Translations under genes and position numbers: made by a program | Assembly (NCBI GenBank): GCA_021107335.1 | Contig: JAIOSZ010000305.1 | Location: 1 to 10,024 of the forward strand | Reading direction: 5' to 3' | Source of the DNA: Desulfuromonadaceae bacterium | Lineage (GTDB): Bacteria > Desulfobacterota > Desulfuromonadia > Desulfuromonadales > Syntrophotaleaceae | DNA length: 10,024 nucleotides | Notes under the pieces: generated by a model | The model's database searches: none | Seen by the model: the letters and a program-made list of their open reading frames with translations, nothing else | What the model was told of the DNA's origin: nothing | Shown: positions 5,476 through 9,993 of the stretch, piece by piece | How positions within the stretch are numbered: the first letter of the stretch is position 1 | How the letters are laid out: every line of letters begins with the position of its first letter

Positions 5476-5967
5476 TTACAAGGCTGATCGGCGAGCGTCT
5501 TCTCTTAGTGCATTCCTCGAAGCTCTATCCACCAGGGTAAACAGTCGATCGATAGTATTTTTGTGCTTTGATGCCTGATGACCTTTCACCTTGAGCAGTT
5601 CGCAATCCAGTTGATCCATCCGGCGATAAAAGTCCTGATACAGCTCGTAATTGTTGAGGCGTGTTTTCTTCTTAGAGCAATAATCGTTTCGCTCCAGTCG
5701 ATCCCTTCTTGCCGGTAAGCCGATGATGTTTTGCGAATCGGTAACCACGATCAAGGGACGGCCTAACAGCTGAAGATCGCCAAGCGCCCATAACAAGGTC
5801 TGCAATTCCAGTTTTGTTGAAGAGGTGGTCGCAAAGCGCTTCACTTTCACTTGCTTGCTCAACTCCTCCAGCGAAAGTCCAGGGTAAGACACCGCCAGGT
5901 AGGCGCCATAGCCAATCTTCGTCTGAGTATTTACGCTGCCATCGGTAAAGAGCGTTACGGCATCCAT
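5476..5967 (-). CDS. RNase H family protein (stand-alone)
   Basis: The product has 163 residues. It has the RNase H fold with acidic active-site residues in order: Asp9 in LFTDGSV, Glu54 in [14 protein letters not shown], Asp77 in VVTDSQN, His130 in KVKGHQAS, and Asp147 in [12 protein letters not shown] (Asp140 is an alternative partner). It should cut the RNA strand of RNA:DNA hybrids. The sequence differs from classical RnhA: there is an insertion [20 protein letters not shown] (85-104) and a different C-terminal helix, as in a recognisable side branch of RNase H proteins. The ATG at 5967 overlaps the stop of the VF530 gene (TGATG); the nearest AGAGGA is 15 nt upstream, so translation is probably coupled. 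A TTG one codon earlier is less likely. Confidence 0.88.
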
Positions 5968-6224
5968 CAAGGTTGCGAATTGTCCTCTGTGCCCTCATCC
6001 CGTGCAATGATAATGGTCGATAGGTATAGATTCTCGACTTTCTTCCTAGCCCAAGGCGTCCTGCGCAGAAATTTGAGACTGGAACTGACCGATGGGTCTT
6101 TTTTAAAGCATCGAATATCGATGCAGTTCCCCAATTCATCCCAGCCGTAATATTCTACCAGGCTGATGACGATCTGTTCCAGGGTTACGCCGTGCAGTGG
6201 GTCATTGACTCGTTGGTCACTCAT
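5967..6224 (-). CDS. VF530 family (DUF2132) DNA-binding protein
   Basis: The product has 85 residues. Residues 7-68 carry the diagnostic VF530 sequence: [40 protein letters not shown], then [22 protein letters not shown]530 is a small all-helical protein, named from a Vibrio fischeri structure and annotated as DNA-binding; its cell role is unclear. A poorly conserved tail ([18 protein letters not shown]) follows. The start ATG overlaps the stop of the upstream membrane-protein gene (ATGA, 4 bp), with GAAGG 8 nt before it, and its own stop overlaps the RNase H start. This gives strong layout evidence for co-translation of three genes and suggests a link between VF530 and RNA:DNA hybrid processing. 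Confidence 0.9.
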
Positions 6225-7300: not shown

Positions 7301-7675
7301 TTATTTGAATTTATCTGCCAGTGCCGCAAAGGGAGAGTGTCCCAGAGTGGGGCGCTCAACTTTAGCCGTTGGACCATCCGTGCCGCGGTCCTCTTGCACA
7401 CCGCGGGTGTGCTCGTGATCGTGGCAATAGATGCAGAGCAGTTCCCAGTTGCTGCCGTCGGGGGGATTGTTATCGTGGTTGTGGTCGATATGGTGCACGG
7501 TGAGTTCACGGAGTTTTTTCCCCTCGAACTCACGGGTGCAGCGACCGCACACCAATGGGAATAGCTTTAGCGCTTGTTCCCGATATCCTGCCTGACGCGT
7601 CTGCTGTTCCTGGCGCATTTCGGCGACCAGGCGGTCTCGATTTTTGGCATCCTGGTTGTTCTTTGAATCAGTCAT
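7301..7675 (-). CDS. yajD: YajD-type HNH nuclease
   Basis: The product has 124 residues. It matches E. coli YajD over residues ~30-95: GYREQALKLFPLVCGRCTRE, LRELTVHHIDHNHDNNPPDG, SNWELLCIYCHDHEHTRG. The HNH beta-beta-alpha-metal site is complete: zinc Cys43/Cys46 and Cys81/Cys84, catalytic HHID (61-64), the Asn of SNWELL (76) and His85/His87. The true DNA substrate of YajD proteins is not known to me. The frame is open further upstream to 7753, but ATG 7675 has AGAGG 5 nt before it and gives the family length; the upstream part is not conserved. The N-terminal 30 residues are charged and helical. It lies 81 bp after yehS on the same strand. Its stop codon touches the end of the palindromic repeat. 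Confidence 0.93.
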   Translation of the reverse strand: MTDSKNNQDAKNRDRLVAEMRQEQQTRQAGYREQALKLFPLVCGRCTREFEGKKLRELTVHHIDHNHDNNPPDGSNWELLCIYCHDHEHTRGVQEDRGTDGPTAKVERPTLGHSPFAALADKFK

Positions 7676-7756
7676 GGGGTCCTCTTGAAACGGGTGCTTT
7701 TCTTGTGATGGTCGAAAAATGGTCTGCATTGTTGTGGGGCTTCGGCCCATCAACCA

Positions 7757-8248
7757 CTAATCTTCTTTGGGCCCGGGTTTTACTTCAATATTATCGCGGT
7801 ATTTAAGCTGCATACCTTTAAGAAAATTACGTAAAACCTGATCCTGACACTCACGATATTGTTTATGCCCTGCTTTACGAAAAAAGGCGCTCAATTCGTG
7901 TTTGCTCAGACAGAACTCAGCCAATCCGAGAATGGCCAACACATCTTCAGCTTTTAAATTTAAGGCAATTTTTAACTTCATGAAGATAATGTTGTTGTTT
8001 AAACGGCTCTCTGGTTTGGGTTGTGGGCCATCTCTTTTGCCTCGCTTATCGATAATCAAACCGTTGAGAAAAATCGCCAGCAACCGGTCGCCACACTTCT
8101 CATACCCTGGATCGTCCTCCTTCTTTAACCAGGCGCTGACCTGCTCCCGGGTTACCTGCTGGTCTGCCAGGCCAAATAGAGCGATCATTGTCGAATCGTT
8201 AAAGTCGAAGATATAGCGAACTCGGCGCATGATATCGTTATTTGTCAT
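7757..8248 (-). CDS. yehS: YehS family protein (DUF1456, two repeats)
   Basis: The product has 163 residues. It consists of two tandem DUF1456 units: residues ~6-65 (RRVRYIFDFNDSTMIALFGL ... RLLAIFLNGLI) and ~90-147 (MKLKIALNLKAEDVLAILGL ... QVLRNFLKGMQ). They share an aligned pattern of a helix, a 'V/LS-x-E-L/V-x-A' helix, a KxxDxxxYxxC-like stretch and a closing FLxGh helix. E. coli YehS has the same order, including the joining stretch before RLNNNIIFMKLKIA. The function of the family is not established; it is soluble and all-helical. AGGAA lies 6 nt before the ATG at 8248. By eye the gene is more AT-rich than its neighbours. It could share a transcript with yajD. Confidence 0.93.
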   Translation of the reverse strand: MTNNDIMRRVRYIFDFNDSTMIALFGLADQQVTREQVSAWLKKEDDPGYEKCGDRLLAIFLNGLIIDKRGKRDGPQPKPESRLNNNIIFMKLKIALNLKAEDVLAILGLAEFCLSKHELSAFFRKAGHKQYRECQDQVLRNFLKGMQLKYRDNIEVKPGPKED

Positions 8249-8541
8249 AGGTAGTTCCTGTGGTAATTAGATCGTTAAGTGCACCGGCTGAAAGTGAGCT
8301 CAGCAAGTCTGGCCGCCAGGGTACACATCTCAGCGGGGAGGCTTACCGAAGCTGATAGTGCCTCAATTTCGTCTTTGGAGCAATGGCAGACTGCATCAAG
8401 TATACGCCTTTCACAAGCGTCGCTCCAGTTTCTCTCTCAATGGCTGGGAAAAAGATTTTGCGCAACGTGCAGGATGTGCGATGCTAGCTCCGATCTGCAA
8501 ACTGTAAAATCCCCAGAAAATGGGCCACCACGGGAGAAAAT
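8249..8541. other. Intergenic region between divergent yehS and the FEN-RNase HI gene
   Basis: This 293-bp gap should hold both divergent promoters, but I see only weak candidates. For the plus-strand gene, TAAAAT (8505-8510) is a fair -10 without a good -35. On the minus strand a frame is open from 8436 down to the TAA at 8275 (53 codons, ending in AARLAELTFSRCT), but it has no ATG, GTG or TTG near its beginning; upstream a single TGA at 8439-8437 interrupts a longer open stretch. It could be a gene relic or chance. No repeat copy, RNA gene or terminator is seen. Confidence 0.4.
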
Positions 8542-9993
8542 GTGAACAAATCGCCACAACTCTATTTACTGGATGGCTCCAGTTACATCTATCGCGCTTA
8601 CTATGGCATTCGTGATGTTGCCACCGCCGATGGTATGCCGACTAATGCCGTTTTCGGTTTTACGCGCATGCTGCTGGGCCTTTTGCAGGAGCACCAACCC
8701 GATTATCTGGCAGTGGTATTCGACCGGCCCCGGGAAGAGACCTTTCGTCGGGAACTCTATCCTGAATACAAGGCTCACCGAGACGCGATGCCCGAAGACC
8801 TGCCGCCGCAGATTGGATACATCCGGCAGGTTTTGCAGGCCTTGCAGATTCCAGCCTTGGAAGCACCCAGGTTTGAGGCTGATGATGTCATTGCCACTCT
8901 GGCCCGCCGCTATGCCGCCGAAGGTATCGAGGTCACGGTGGTCACCGGCGATAAGGACTTGATGCAGATTGTCGACGAGCGAATCTCCCTGCTCGATACC
9001 ATGAAGGATACGCGCTCGGGGCCGCAAGAGGTTATGAAACGTTTCGGGGTTCCGCCTGAACTGGTCGCCGATGTTCTAGGCCTGGCCGGTGACACCTCGG
9101 ACAATATCCCTGGCGTTCCCGGCATCGGCGAGAAAACCGCTTCTGAGCTGGTGCAACGCTTCGGCAGCCTGGAAGATGTCCTTAAGTGGTCCAGTCTGGT
9201 GAATGGCAAGAAACGCCGGGAGAATTTACTGGCCCATGCCGATCAAGCTCGGCTGTCGAAAACCCTGGCGACACTCCGAGAGGATGTGACCCTGGAGGTT
9301 GCCCTGGCTGATCTGCAGCGACAGCCGCCAAATCTGCTGACCTTGATTCCTCTGCTAAAGGAGCTAGAATTCGAGGCCCTTGAGATCGCCTTCACCCCGC
9401 CGCCGGCGGGAGTGGTGGAGATTTACAGCGACGGCTCGGGCCGGGACTCGGGACCGGGGGGCTACGGCGTGGTCTTACGCTATGGCGAGCATGAAAAGGA
9501 ACTCAGCGGATTTGAGCCCACGGCCACCTCCCAGCGCATGGAATTGATCGCCGCAATTCGAGGTCTGGAAGCCCTGCATAAACCACAGACGGTTCGTCTG
9601 TTCAGCGACTCCCAGTATCTGGTTCGGGGCATGAGCAACTGGATCCACGGCTGGGTTCGCGATGGTCGCCTTGAGACGCCGGGCGCCTTGGCCAATCAGG
9701 ACCTCTGGCTGCAGCTGCTGGCCCTTTCTCGCGAACATGAGATTCAATGGGAGTGGGTGAAGGGACATGCCGGACATCCCTTCAATGAGCGCTGCGACAA
9801 GATGGCCAAGCGGGCCGCCGATGAGGGTATGCAGACAGCGGCCGCCGATCGGGGCACAGAAACGGCAGCGGAAGAGGCAGTGGCGGAGCCGGTCCGTCCA
9901 GTGTCGGTGGCAGCGCTCTGTTTAGAGCCGATCCCGGCCGGGGAAGATATTGATTTTGAGGCTGAGGATGATGGCCAGTTGAAGTTGTGCTAG
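8542..9993 (+). CDS. Fusion protein: PolA-type 5'-3' exonuclease (FEN) domain plus RNase HI domain
   Basis: The product has 483 residues with a GTG start (GGGAG 5 nt upstream). Residues 1-~285 are the 5' nuclease domain of DNA polymerase I: LLDGSSYIYRAYYG (Asp11), VVFDRPREETFRRELYPEYK (Asp61), FEADD (Asp114, Asp115), VVTGDKDLMQ (Asp137, Asp139) and the helix-3-turn-helix LAGDTSDNIPGVPGIGEKTA (Asp184, Asp187). Instead of the PolA proofreading and polymerase domains, a short TPPPAG linker leads to a full RNase HI (~291-427): EIYSDGS (Asp297), SQRMELIAAI (Glu334), LFSDSQYLV (Asp356), WEWVKGHAGHP (His409) and NERCDKMAK (Asp419), all active-site residues kept. An acidic Ala-rich tail ends at Cys483. 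The two activities degrade RNA:DNA hybrids and 5' flaps, so Okazaki primer removal or R-loop repair is a reasonable inference. It is transcribed away from yehS. Confidence 0.93.
   Translation: MNKSPQLYLLDGSSYIYRAYYGIRDVATADGMPTNAVFGFTRMLLGLLQEHQPDYLAVVFDRPREETFRRELYPEYKAHRDAMPEDLPPQIGYIRQVLQALQIPALEAPRFEADDVIATLARRYAAEGIEVTVVTGDKDLMQIVDERISLLDTMKDTRSGPQEVMKRFGVPPELVADVLGLAGDTSDNIPGVPGIGEKTASELVQRFGSLEDVLKWSSLVNGKKRRENLLAHADQARLSKTLATLREDVTLEVALADLQRQPPNLLTLIPLLKELEFEALEIAFTPPPAGVVEIYSDGSGRDSGPGGYGVVLRYGEHEKELSGFEPTATSQRMELIAAIRGLEALHKPQTVRLFSDSQYLVRGMSNWIHGWVRDGRLETPGALANQDLWLQLLALSREHEIQWEWVKGHAGHPFNERCDKMAKRAADEGMQTAAADRGTETAAEEAVAEPVRPVSVAALCLEPIPAGEDIDFEAEDDGQLKLC

What the first reader, a model, noticed from the sequence alone, without database searches (positions are those of the whole stretch)
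8542..9993. PolA-like 5' nuclease fused to a complete RNase HI
Seen: one uninterrupted frame carries all FEN/PolA 5'-nuclease acidic residues and then all RNase HI catalytic residues, joined by a short TPPPAG linker exactly where PolA would pass into its 3'-5' exonuclease domain. Known: RNase HI nicks RNA in RNA:DNA hybrids, and the PolA 5' nuclease removes the remaining RNA and 5' flaps; together they remove Okazaki primers. Inference: this is a single-chain primer- or R-loop-removal enzyme, made by replacing the Klenow part of a polA-like gene with rnhA. I do not recall this architecture as a described enzyme, though related proteins may be annotated simply as RNase HI or as 5'-3' exonuclease.
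Basis: partly seen in the sequence, partly recalled or inferred. Interest (0 to 1): 0.75.

Follow-up and report, generated by a model that had tools for sequence, protein, structure and literature searches.

The report
Flap nuclease fused to RNase HI
One group of bacteria (relatives of Geobacter and Syntrophotalea) carries a conserved two-in-one enzyme that joins the primer-removing front part of DNA polymerase I to an RNA-cutting RNase HI, with a tail end that looks like a tether to the replication clamp; no description of it was found, and its activity is untested.

Summary
Window 8542-9993 (+) is one 483-aa frame: PolA-type 5' nuclease (aa 7-264), short linker (285-290), RNase HI (292-426). 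It is no assembly join: the same architecture is in 120 of 120 listed homologs and 33 of 146 genomes of its class, closed ones included. Both active sites are intact and both halves are under purifying selection. Each half forms one clade near its Desulfuromonadia counterpart: probably one old fusion with many losses.

It adds to the usual genes: PolA in 16 of 16 other fused relatives; a separate rnhA in 32 of 33 class bearers, though in two pieces in two of them.

Best reading: an accessory, clamp-tethered remover of RNA primers or RNA-DNA hybrids. Architecture is shown; activity, clamp binding and pathway are inferred.

The parts
8532..8537 (+). Shine-Dalgarno-like GGGAGA
   Evidence: read; an SD-like string lies near the start in 21 of 30 homologous genes examined (4 of 34 were dropped for lack of a start anchor)
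8542..9993 (+). fused 5' nuclease-RNase HI gene, 483 aa
   Evidence: dN/dS about 0.11 against three same-genus relatives and one same-family relative
8560..9048 (+). 5_3_exonuc_N domain (aa 7-169)
   Evidence: Pfam PF02739, E 2e-60
9049..9333 (+). 5_3_exonuc (C-terminal SAM fold) domain (aa 170-264)
   Evidence: Pfam PF01367, E 1e-31
9394..9411 (+). linker TPPPAG (aa 285-290)
   Evidence: lies between the predicted helix 278-284 and strand 291-299
9415..9819 (+). RNase HI domain (aa 292-426)
   Evidence: Pfam PF00075, E 1e-36; closest solved structures by sequence are RNases H/HI
9628..9696 (+). handle region (aa 363-385) that has lost its basic charge
   Evidence: net charge -2 to +1 in 37 of 37 fused rows, +2 to +4 in 21 of 21 class rnhA, +2 to +7 in 78 of 78 other rnhA
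9856..9969 (+). variable tail before the motif, predicted disordered (aa 439-476; the low-confidence stretch runs on to 483)
   Evidence: pLDDT below 50 for aa 439-483; mean majority fraction 0.53 for aa 427-465 and 0.61 for 466-476
9973..9990 (+). C-terminal motif GQLKLC (aa 478-483), clamp-motif-like
   Evidence: Q479 in 121 of 121, L480 in 116, L482 in 117, last residue C 110 / Y 10 / F 1

Best explanation
A dedicated, accessory RNA-primer and RNA-DNA hybrid processing enzyme of the Desulfuromonadia. The RNase HI half cuts the RNA strand of a hybrid; the PolA-type 5' nuclease half, on the same chain, removes the remaining 5' RNA or flap; and the flexible tail brings the protein to the beta sliding clamp through its C-terminal GQLxL[C/Y]. 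It would work beside, not instead of, Pol I, RNase HI and RNase HII. SHOWN: one chain, both active sites intact, purifying selection, single clade for each half, conserved tail motif, changed RNase HI handle. INFERRED: both activities, their order, clamp binding, and the role in Okazaki fragment maturation or hybrid removal. The loss of the basic handle suggests that the 5' nuclease half takes over part of the substrate binding, as was proposed for the hybrid-binding domain of Bacillus halodurans RNase HI.
For: Architecture and intact catalytic residues. 120 of 120 listed homologs with the same three domains. One clade for each half, support 100/100. dN/dS 0.06-0.12 in the nuclease half and 0.03-0.07 in the RNase HI half, against four relatives. 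C-terminal motif as conserved as the enzyme domains (0.92 against 0.87) after a variable tail (0.53). All 11 DnaE- and DinB-like frames that the script recognised in six fused-bearing genomes carry Q-x-x-L-F (6 of 12 DnaE-family loci scanned and 5 of 11 DinB-family loci were recognised), and in 5 of the 6 DnaE it is preceded by G as in the fused tail. Review passages define the clamp motif as Q-phi-x-[L/M]-[F/L] (or with one more residue), in some partners at the C-terminus and mostly with acidic flanks (PMC11139829, passages). B. subtilis FenA with RNase HIII gives precedent for a discrete FEN and an RNase H acting on primers (PMC10191290, abstract and passages). Handle loss made up by another domain was proposed for B. 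halodurans RNase HI (PMC1950709, passages).
Against: No activity, binding or expression data exist here. The motif's last residue is Cys in 110 of 121, while the canonical motif wants Phe or Leu there and that position is described as demanding. The gene is patchy (33 of 146 class genomes) and its bearers keep polA and rnhB and nearly always an rnhA, so it is dispensable over evolution. The RNase HI half changed residues that are fixed or nearly fixed in other rnhA (N->S330, N->Q331, C->G300, E->F414 against class rnhA) and may be weak or altered. No replication operon: neighbours vary.
Confidence: 0.58

Rival explanations
1. R-loop or transcription-replication conflict resolver rather than primer remover: RNase HI cuts the R-loop RNA and the 5' nuclease trims the displaced or flapped end.
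For: Same two activities; a passage of PMC10191290 says that RNase HI and HIII resolve R-loops.
Against: The clamp-like tail and the PolA-type nuclease point to lagging-strand or repair sites; nothing seen points to transcription. The lost basic handle argues against a generic long-hybrid RNase.
Confidence: 0.2
2. DNA-repair enzyme (ribonucleotide- or damage-linked excision) that uses mainly the flap nuclease, with the RNase HI half acting on embedded RNA or mainly as a binding module.
For: Accessory, patchy distribution; at one and the same threshold the RNase HI half has more fixed differences per residue from its class relatives than the nuclease half (8 of 154 against 5 of 284).
Against: The RNase HI catalytic residues are kept in nearly all copies and that half has the lower dN/dS in all four comparisons. 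No LexA-type operator was common upstream (1 of 30 each for two patterns, 0 of 30 for a third).
Confidence: 0.17
3. The C-terminal motif is not a clamp motif but binds another partner (for example an SSB-tail-like acidic-plus-hydrophobic tip, recalled, or a Cys-dependent contact).
For: Cys is last in 110 of 121; the preceding stretch is acidic.
Against: Q-L-x-L is the core of the clamp motif and Q is invariant (121 of 121); Y and F occur at the last position in 11 of 121.
Confidence: 0.35
4. Ordinary redundant paralog or decaying fusion without a specific role.
For: Patchy; coexists with PolA, RNase HII and nearly always RNase HI.
Against: dN/dS about 0.11 over the whole gene, active sites and tail Q conserved, intact in distant families of the class.
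Confidence: 0.05
5. Assembly artefact joining polA and rnhA.
For: The window genome is a 351-contig draft, 67% complete.
Against: Same gene in single-contig genomes and in 33 of 146 class genomes.
Confidence: 0.01

Closest known systems
5' nuclease (FEN) domain of bacterial DNA polymerase I
   Same: Whole FEN domain, all nine acidic residues; 52-63% identical to the PolA matches in the 40 relatives (draft pieces aside); groups with Desulfuromonadia PolA.
   Different: No 3'-5' exonuclease or polymerase domain follows; RNase HI follows instead.
Discrete bacterial FENs: B. subtilis FenA (YpcP), E. coli Xni
   Same: FEN without polymerase; FenA shows a phenotype together with an RNase HIII defect (PMC10191290).
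   Different: Those are stand-alone proteins; here an RNase HI and a conserved tail are attached, and the PolA model scores higher than the Xni model (343.8 against 177.8 bits).
Bacterial RNase HI (RnhA)
   Same: RNase_H domain, five catalytic residues, W367 and W371 of the handle; 164 bits to NCBIfam RNase HI, cut-off 160.
   Different: Basic handle lost; E->F414, N->S330, N->Q331, C->G300 against class rnhA; fused; own conserved tail.
RNase HI with an added domain: B. halodurans dsRHbd type; Streptomyces SCO2299 RNase H-phosphatase
   Same: RNase HI as part of a two-domain enzyme; in B. halodurans the extra domain is proposed to make up for the missing basic handle (PMC1950709, passages).
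   Different: The partner here is a nuclease that by common knowledge serves the same pathway, and it is N-terminal.
Beta-clamp clients with C-terminal motif (Pol II, Pol IV, transposases)
   Same: Short linear motif at the end of the chain (PMC11139829, PMC4549789; passages); here on a predicted-disordered acidic tail.
   Different: Cys (or Tyr) at position 5 in nearly all; binding untested.

Membership tests
PolA-type 5' nuclease (FEN) | 5_3_exonuc_N + 5_3_exonuc over curated cut-offs | tested here: met
   203.6 and 109.7 bits against cut-offs 34.3 and 40
PolA-type 5' nuclease (FEN) | nine acidic metal-binding positions (list recalled) | tested here: met
   all nine in the window; 36 of 37 tree rows complete, one with one change
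PolA-type 5' nuclease (FEN) | 5' flap/exonuclease activity | not testable with these tools
   needs assay
DNA polymerase I | 3'-5' exonuclease and polymerase domains | tested here: not met
   no such Pfam match in the 483 aa; 343.8 bits against NCBIfam PolA cut-off 720
RNase HI | RNase_H domain and NCBIfam RNase HI score | tested here: met
   126.7 bits, cut-off 25.8; 164.1 bits, cut-off 160
RNase HI | catalytic D-E-D-H-D (list recalled) | tested here: met
   D297 E334 D356 H409 D419, invariant but for one D297T in 121
RNase HI | basic protrusion (handle) of E. coli type | tested here: not met
   net charge -2 to +1 in 37 of 37. Also absent from some active RNases HI (PMC1950709 passages), so not decisive for the family
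RNase HI | cuts RNA of RNA-DNA hybrids | not testable with these tools
   needs assay
Beta-clamp client | motif Q-phi-x-[L/M]-[F/L] | tested here: inconclusive
   Q 121/121, L at position 2 116/121, L at position 4 117/121, position 5 C 110, Y 10, F 1
Beta-clamp client | binds the clamp | not testable with these tools
   needs complex prediction or binding assay
Stand-alone FEN (Xni/FenA) | FEN domain alone | tested here: not met
   RNase HI fused

The most novel reading that the evidence does not exclude
A single-chain, sliding-clamp-tethered Okazaki-primer removal enzyme in bacteria: RNase H and flap endonuclease fused, with the RNase H surface remodelled so that substrate is handed between the two active sites. 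Functionally it would be a bacterial counterpart of the separate clamp-bound FEN1 and RNase H2 of eukaryotes (recalled), evolved once in Desulfuromonadia beside the normal Pol I pathway.
Probability: 0.4. Interest if true: 0.75.

Novelty: new variant of a known kind. Interest (0 to 1): 0.6.

Why it matters
How bacteria divide primer removal between Pol I, discrete FENs and RNases H is under revision (PMC10191290, abstract and passages). A natural fusion suggests from genome structure alone that the two activities act on the same substrate. It gives a ready protein for asking whether RNase H and FEN hand over the substrate and whether the clamp brings them in. Bearers and non-bearers within one class allow comparative tests; in one bearer no separate RNase HI was found (G029) and in two the separate rnhA reads in two pieces (G022, G152). 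It also corrects annotation: those of these proteins that carry a name are mostly filed as plain 'ribonuclease HI'.

Tried and rejected
Assembly artefact: rejected by closed genomes. Replacement of a missing polA, rnhA or rnhB: not supported; PolA is in 16 of 16 other fused relatives, a second RNase HI match in 32 of 33 class bearers (27 seen in its list, G022 and the four not listed checked; in G022 and G152 it reads in two pieces), RNase HII in 33 of 33 (read off the table). The window genome's own polA could not be shown: no polymerase domain was found in its 67%-complete draft, only a short 5' piece on C341. Decay of the PolA 5' nuclease in bearers: not seen; 15 of 16 keep all nine residues and one has two unreadable letters. 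Mobile-element carriage: no record with 80% coverage in phages (0 of 796 matching records) or plasmids (0 of 1137); the viral-contig scan gave 7 loci, in which only the RNase HI part of the query matches (36-41% identity). Conserved operon: none; only a GNAT acetyltransferase recurs within two genes in 12 of 34 loci (two of the 34, L035 and L124, lie on contigs of one and the same length and give the same tail, so probably one genome). SOS control: not supported. Phylum search: 3 of 395 genomes, all three in this class; at most 7 candidates a genome were scored there. AlphaFold gave two folded parts and a low-confidence tail (mean pLDDT 76.9, pTM 0.70); a complex with the clamp could not be run.

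Corrected on recount: my first count of fixed differences used a looser threshold for the RNase HI half (13) than for the nuclease half (5). At equal thresholds it is 8 of 154 against 5 of 284, or 13 of 154 against 10 of 284: still more per residue in the RNase HI half, but the contrast is milder.

Rows left out: in the RNase HI tree 44 of 78 outside rnhA rows were left out by a random draw and one short or duplicate row was dropped; the handle count used all 136 rows. Neighbourhood: 1 of 35 loci (L143) gave no fused gene call, probably because an antisense frame is open there (the one at L013 of the same genome is). Upstream scan: 4 of 34 dropped. A first look at DinB/DnaE tails picked wrong frames and is superseded, which recognised 6 of the 12 DnaE-family loci scanned (a 13th, L252, was not scanned) and 5 of 11 DinB-family loci.

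Full report
WHAT IS THERE. Window 8542-9993 (+) is one uninterrupted 483-aa frame with a GTG start and GGGAGA upstream. Pfam finds 5_3_exonuc_N (aa 7-169), 5_3_exonuc (170-264) and RNase_H (292-426), all far over their cut-offs. Two NCBIfam PolA models match aa 6-282 and stop at about position 280 of 890, where PolA would continue into its 3'-5' exonuclease (general knowledge). The linker TPPPAG is aa 285-290. The nearest solved structures by sequence are PolA/Taq for the first half and RNase H/HI for the second. The AlphaFold model (20-sequence alignment) shows two folded parts and a low-confidence, presumably disordered tail from aa 439 (mean pLDDT 76.9, pTM 0.70).

IT IS REAL AND CONSERVED. 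Of the 120 listed homologs (7800 passed the E-value; only 120 are shown), 120 carry all three domains; sources that name them mostly write 'ribonuclease HI' (Syntrophotalea, Desulfuromonas, Trichloromonas, Geobacteraceae). Syntrophotalea belongs to the class Desulfuromonadia in NCBI taxonomy; I use that name for the window's class, whose genomes bear only codes in the searches. Among 40 genomes (the window's and its relatives) 17 have the gene, one of them split over two contigs. Across the class, 33 of 146 genomes have it: 32 match over the whole junction query, and G086 matches in part but its frame was then read as fused. In a phylum sample, 3 of 395, all three of this class. Outside the class the only case met was a genome named 'Nitrospirae bacterium GWC2_56_14' (L034), whose copy falls inside the class copies in the tree; transfer or a misplaced contig is open. 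Ten copies lie in single-contig genomes, which excludes an assembly join.

ORIGIN. In a 95-row tree of 5' nuclease domains, 37 fused rows form one clade (100/100). It joins the PolA of the class and five other PolA rows in one supported group of 71 rows (99/97), within which the order is unresolved. In a 92-row tree of RNase HI domains the 37 fused rows are again one clade (100/100), on a long stem (1.12 changes per column, against 0.55 for the nuclease half), inside a group with 21 class rnhA and 5 others (94/88, not starred). The plain reading is one fusion of home-grown polA and rnhA pieces near the base of the class, then mostly vertical descent with many losses. Losses were not counted on a species tree.

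IT IS AN EXTRA, NOT A SUBSTITUTE. PolA of about 900 aa is present in 16 of 16 fused relatives other than the window genome; 15 of these 16 keep all nine nuclease residues and one has two unreadable letters. A second RNase HI match is present in 32 of 33 class bearers. The exception is G029, rated 100% complete but in 420 contigs; and in G022 and G152 the separate rnhA reads in two pieces, by decay or by draft error. RNase HII is present in 33 of 33 bearers and 143 of 146 genomes. The window genome itself shows rnhA on C334, rnhB, and of polA only a short 5' piece; it is 67% complete.

THE TWO HALVES EVOLVED DIFFERENTLY. At one and the same threshold the nuclease half has 5 fixed differences from class PolA in 284 residues, none at the nine acidic sites, and the RNase HI half 8 from class rnhA in 154; at a looser threshold 10 and 13. 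Among those of the RNase HI half are N->S330, N->Q331 and E->F414 (F in 121 of 121) and, at the looser threshold, C->G300. By the alignment to E. coli-type RNase HI these are N44, N45, E129 and C13; that N44, N45 and C13 lie near the substrate is recalled. The handle has net charge -2 to +1 in 37 of 37 fused rows, +2 to +4 in 21 of 21 class rnhA and +2 to +7 in 78 of 78 other rnhA. Passages of PMC1950709 say the handle takes part in substrate binding in E. coli RNase HI and that an added domain may replace it in B. halodurans. I infer that the 5' nuclease half plays that part here. Both halves are under purifying selection (dN/dS 0.06-0.12 and 0.03-0.07 against four relatives; tail 0.36-0.42 in three, saturated in the fourth).

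THE TAIL. After RNase HI comes a variable tail, acidic in most (mean majority fraction 0.53 for aa 427-465), then seven residues as conserved as the enzyme domains (0.92 against 0.87): D-G-Q-L-[RK]-L-[C/Y] at the very C-terminus. Over 121 sequences: Q 121, L 116, L 117, last residue C 110, Y 10, F 1 (endings also). The 34 fused genes read from fetched loci all end G-Q-x-x-[L/F]-[C/Y]. The beta-clamp motif is given as Q-phi-x-[L/M]-[F/L], in some partners C-terminal, flanks mostly acidic (PMC11139829, passages; C-terminal QLxLF also PMC4549789, passages). In six fused-bearing genomes the 6 recognised DnaE frames and the 5 recognised DinB-like frames all carry Q-x-x-L-F, 5 of the 6 DnaE with the same preceding G (12 other loci scanned were not recognised). 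So four of five positions fit and the fifth, Cys, does not. I rate clamp binding at about even odds or slightly better.

MECHANISM. Most likely: clamp-tethered cutting of primer RNA by the RNase HI half, then removal of the rest by the flap nuclease half, in support of Pol I. Precedent: in B. subtilis a discrete FEN is proposed as the main primer nuclease and shows a phenotype together with loss of RNase HIII (PMC10191290, abstract and passages). R-loop and repair roles remain open rivals.

KNOWN OR NOT. Parts known, combination apparently undescribed. Searches: plus passages of three surveys that could have listed it: PMC12926913 on bacterial polymerases and solo FENs, PMC3985635 on the RNase H-like superfamily, PMC1950709 on prokaryotic RNase H genes. 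None of the passages seen mentions a FEN-RNase HI fusion; the whole texts and the subscription literature were not read.

VERDICT. Observation confirmed; interpretation partly supported; new variant of a known kind.

Noticed in passing
window 5476-5970 (-): A second, distant RNase H-like protein (164 aa, 52.5 bits to RNase_H, 43.5 bits against the NCBIfam RNase HI cut-off of 160) lies on the same contig, next to an RhlE-like DEAD-box helicase gene.
   Followed up: no
window 7757-8248 (-), 7301-7753 (-): DUF1456 protein and YajD-type HNH nuclease genes upstream of the fused gene; both also lie upstream of it in the two same-genus loci examined (L149, L138), and not within four genes in the other loci.
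   Followed up: partly
L218 (G000:C341), about 1483-1635: Short 5' piece of a polA-like frame that then runs into unlike sequence and a stop; the only trace of polA found in the window's incomplete genome.
   Followed up: partly
L034 4200-5636: Fused gene in a genome named Nitrospirae bacterium GWC2_56_14, nested among class copies: transfer, or a misplaced contig or name.
   Followed up: partly
loci: A GNAT acetyltransferase gene lies within two genes of the fused gene in 12 of 34 loci.
   Followed up: no
G029; also G022:C15 and G152:C4: G029: bearer rated 100% complete with no separate RNase HI found. G022 and G152: the separate rnhA reads in two pieces. Possible natural cases where the fusion is the only whole RNase HI.
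   Followed up: partly
G167:C16:317-1081: In a Lentzea genome a 561-aa open frame carries a PolA-type 5' nuclease match apart from polA.
   Followed up: no
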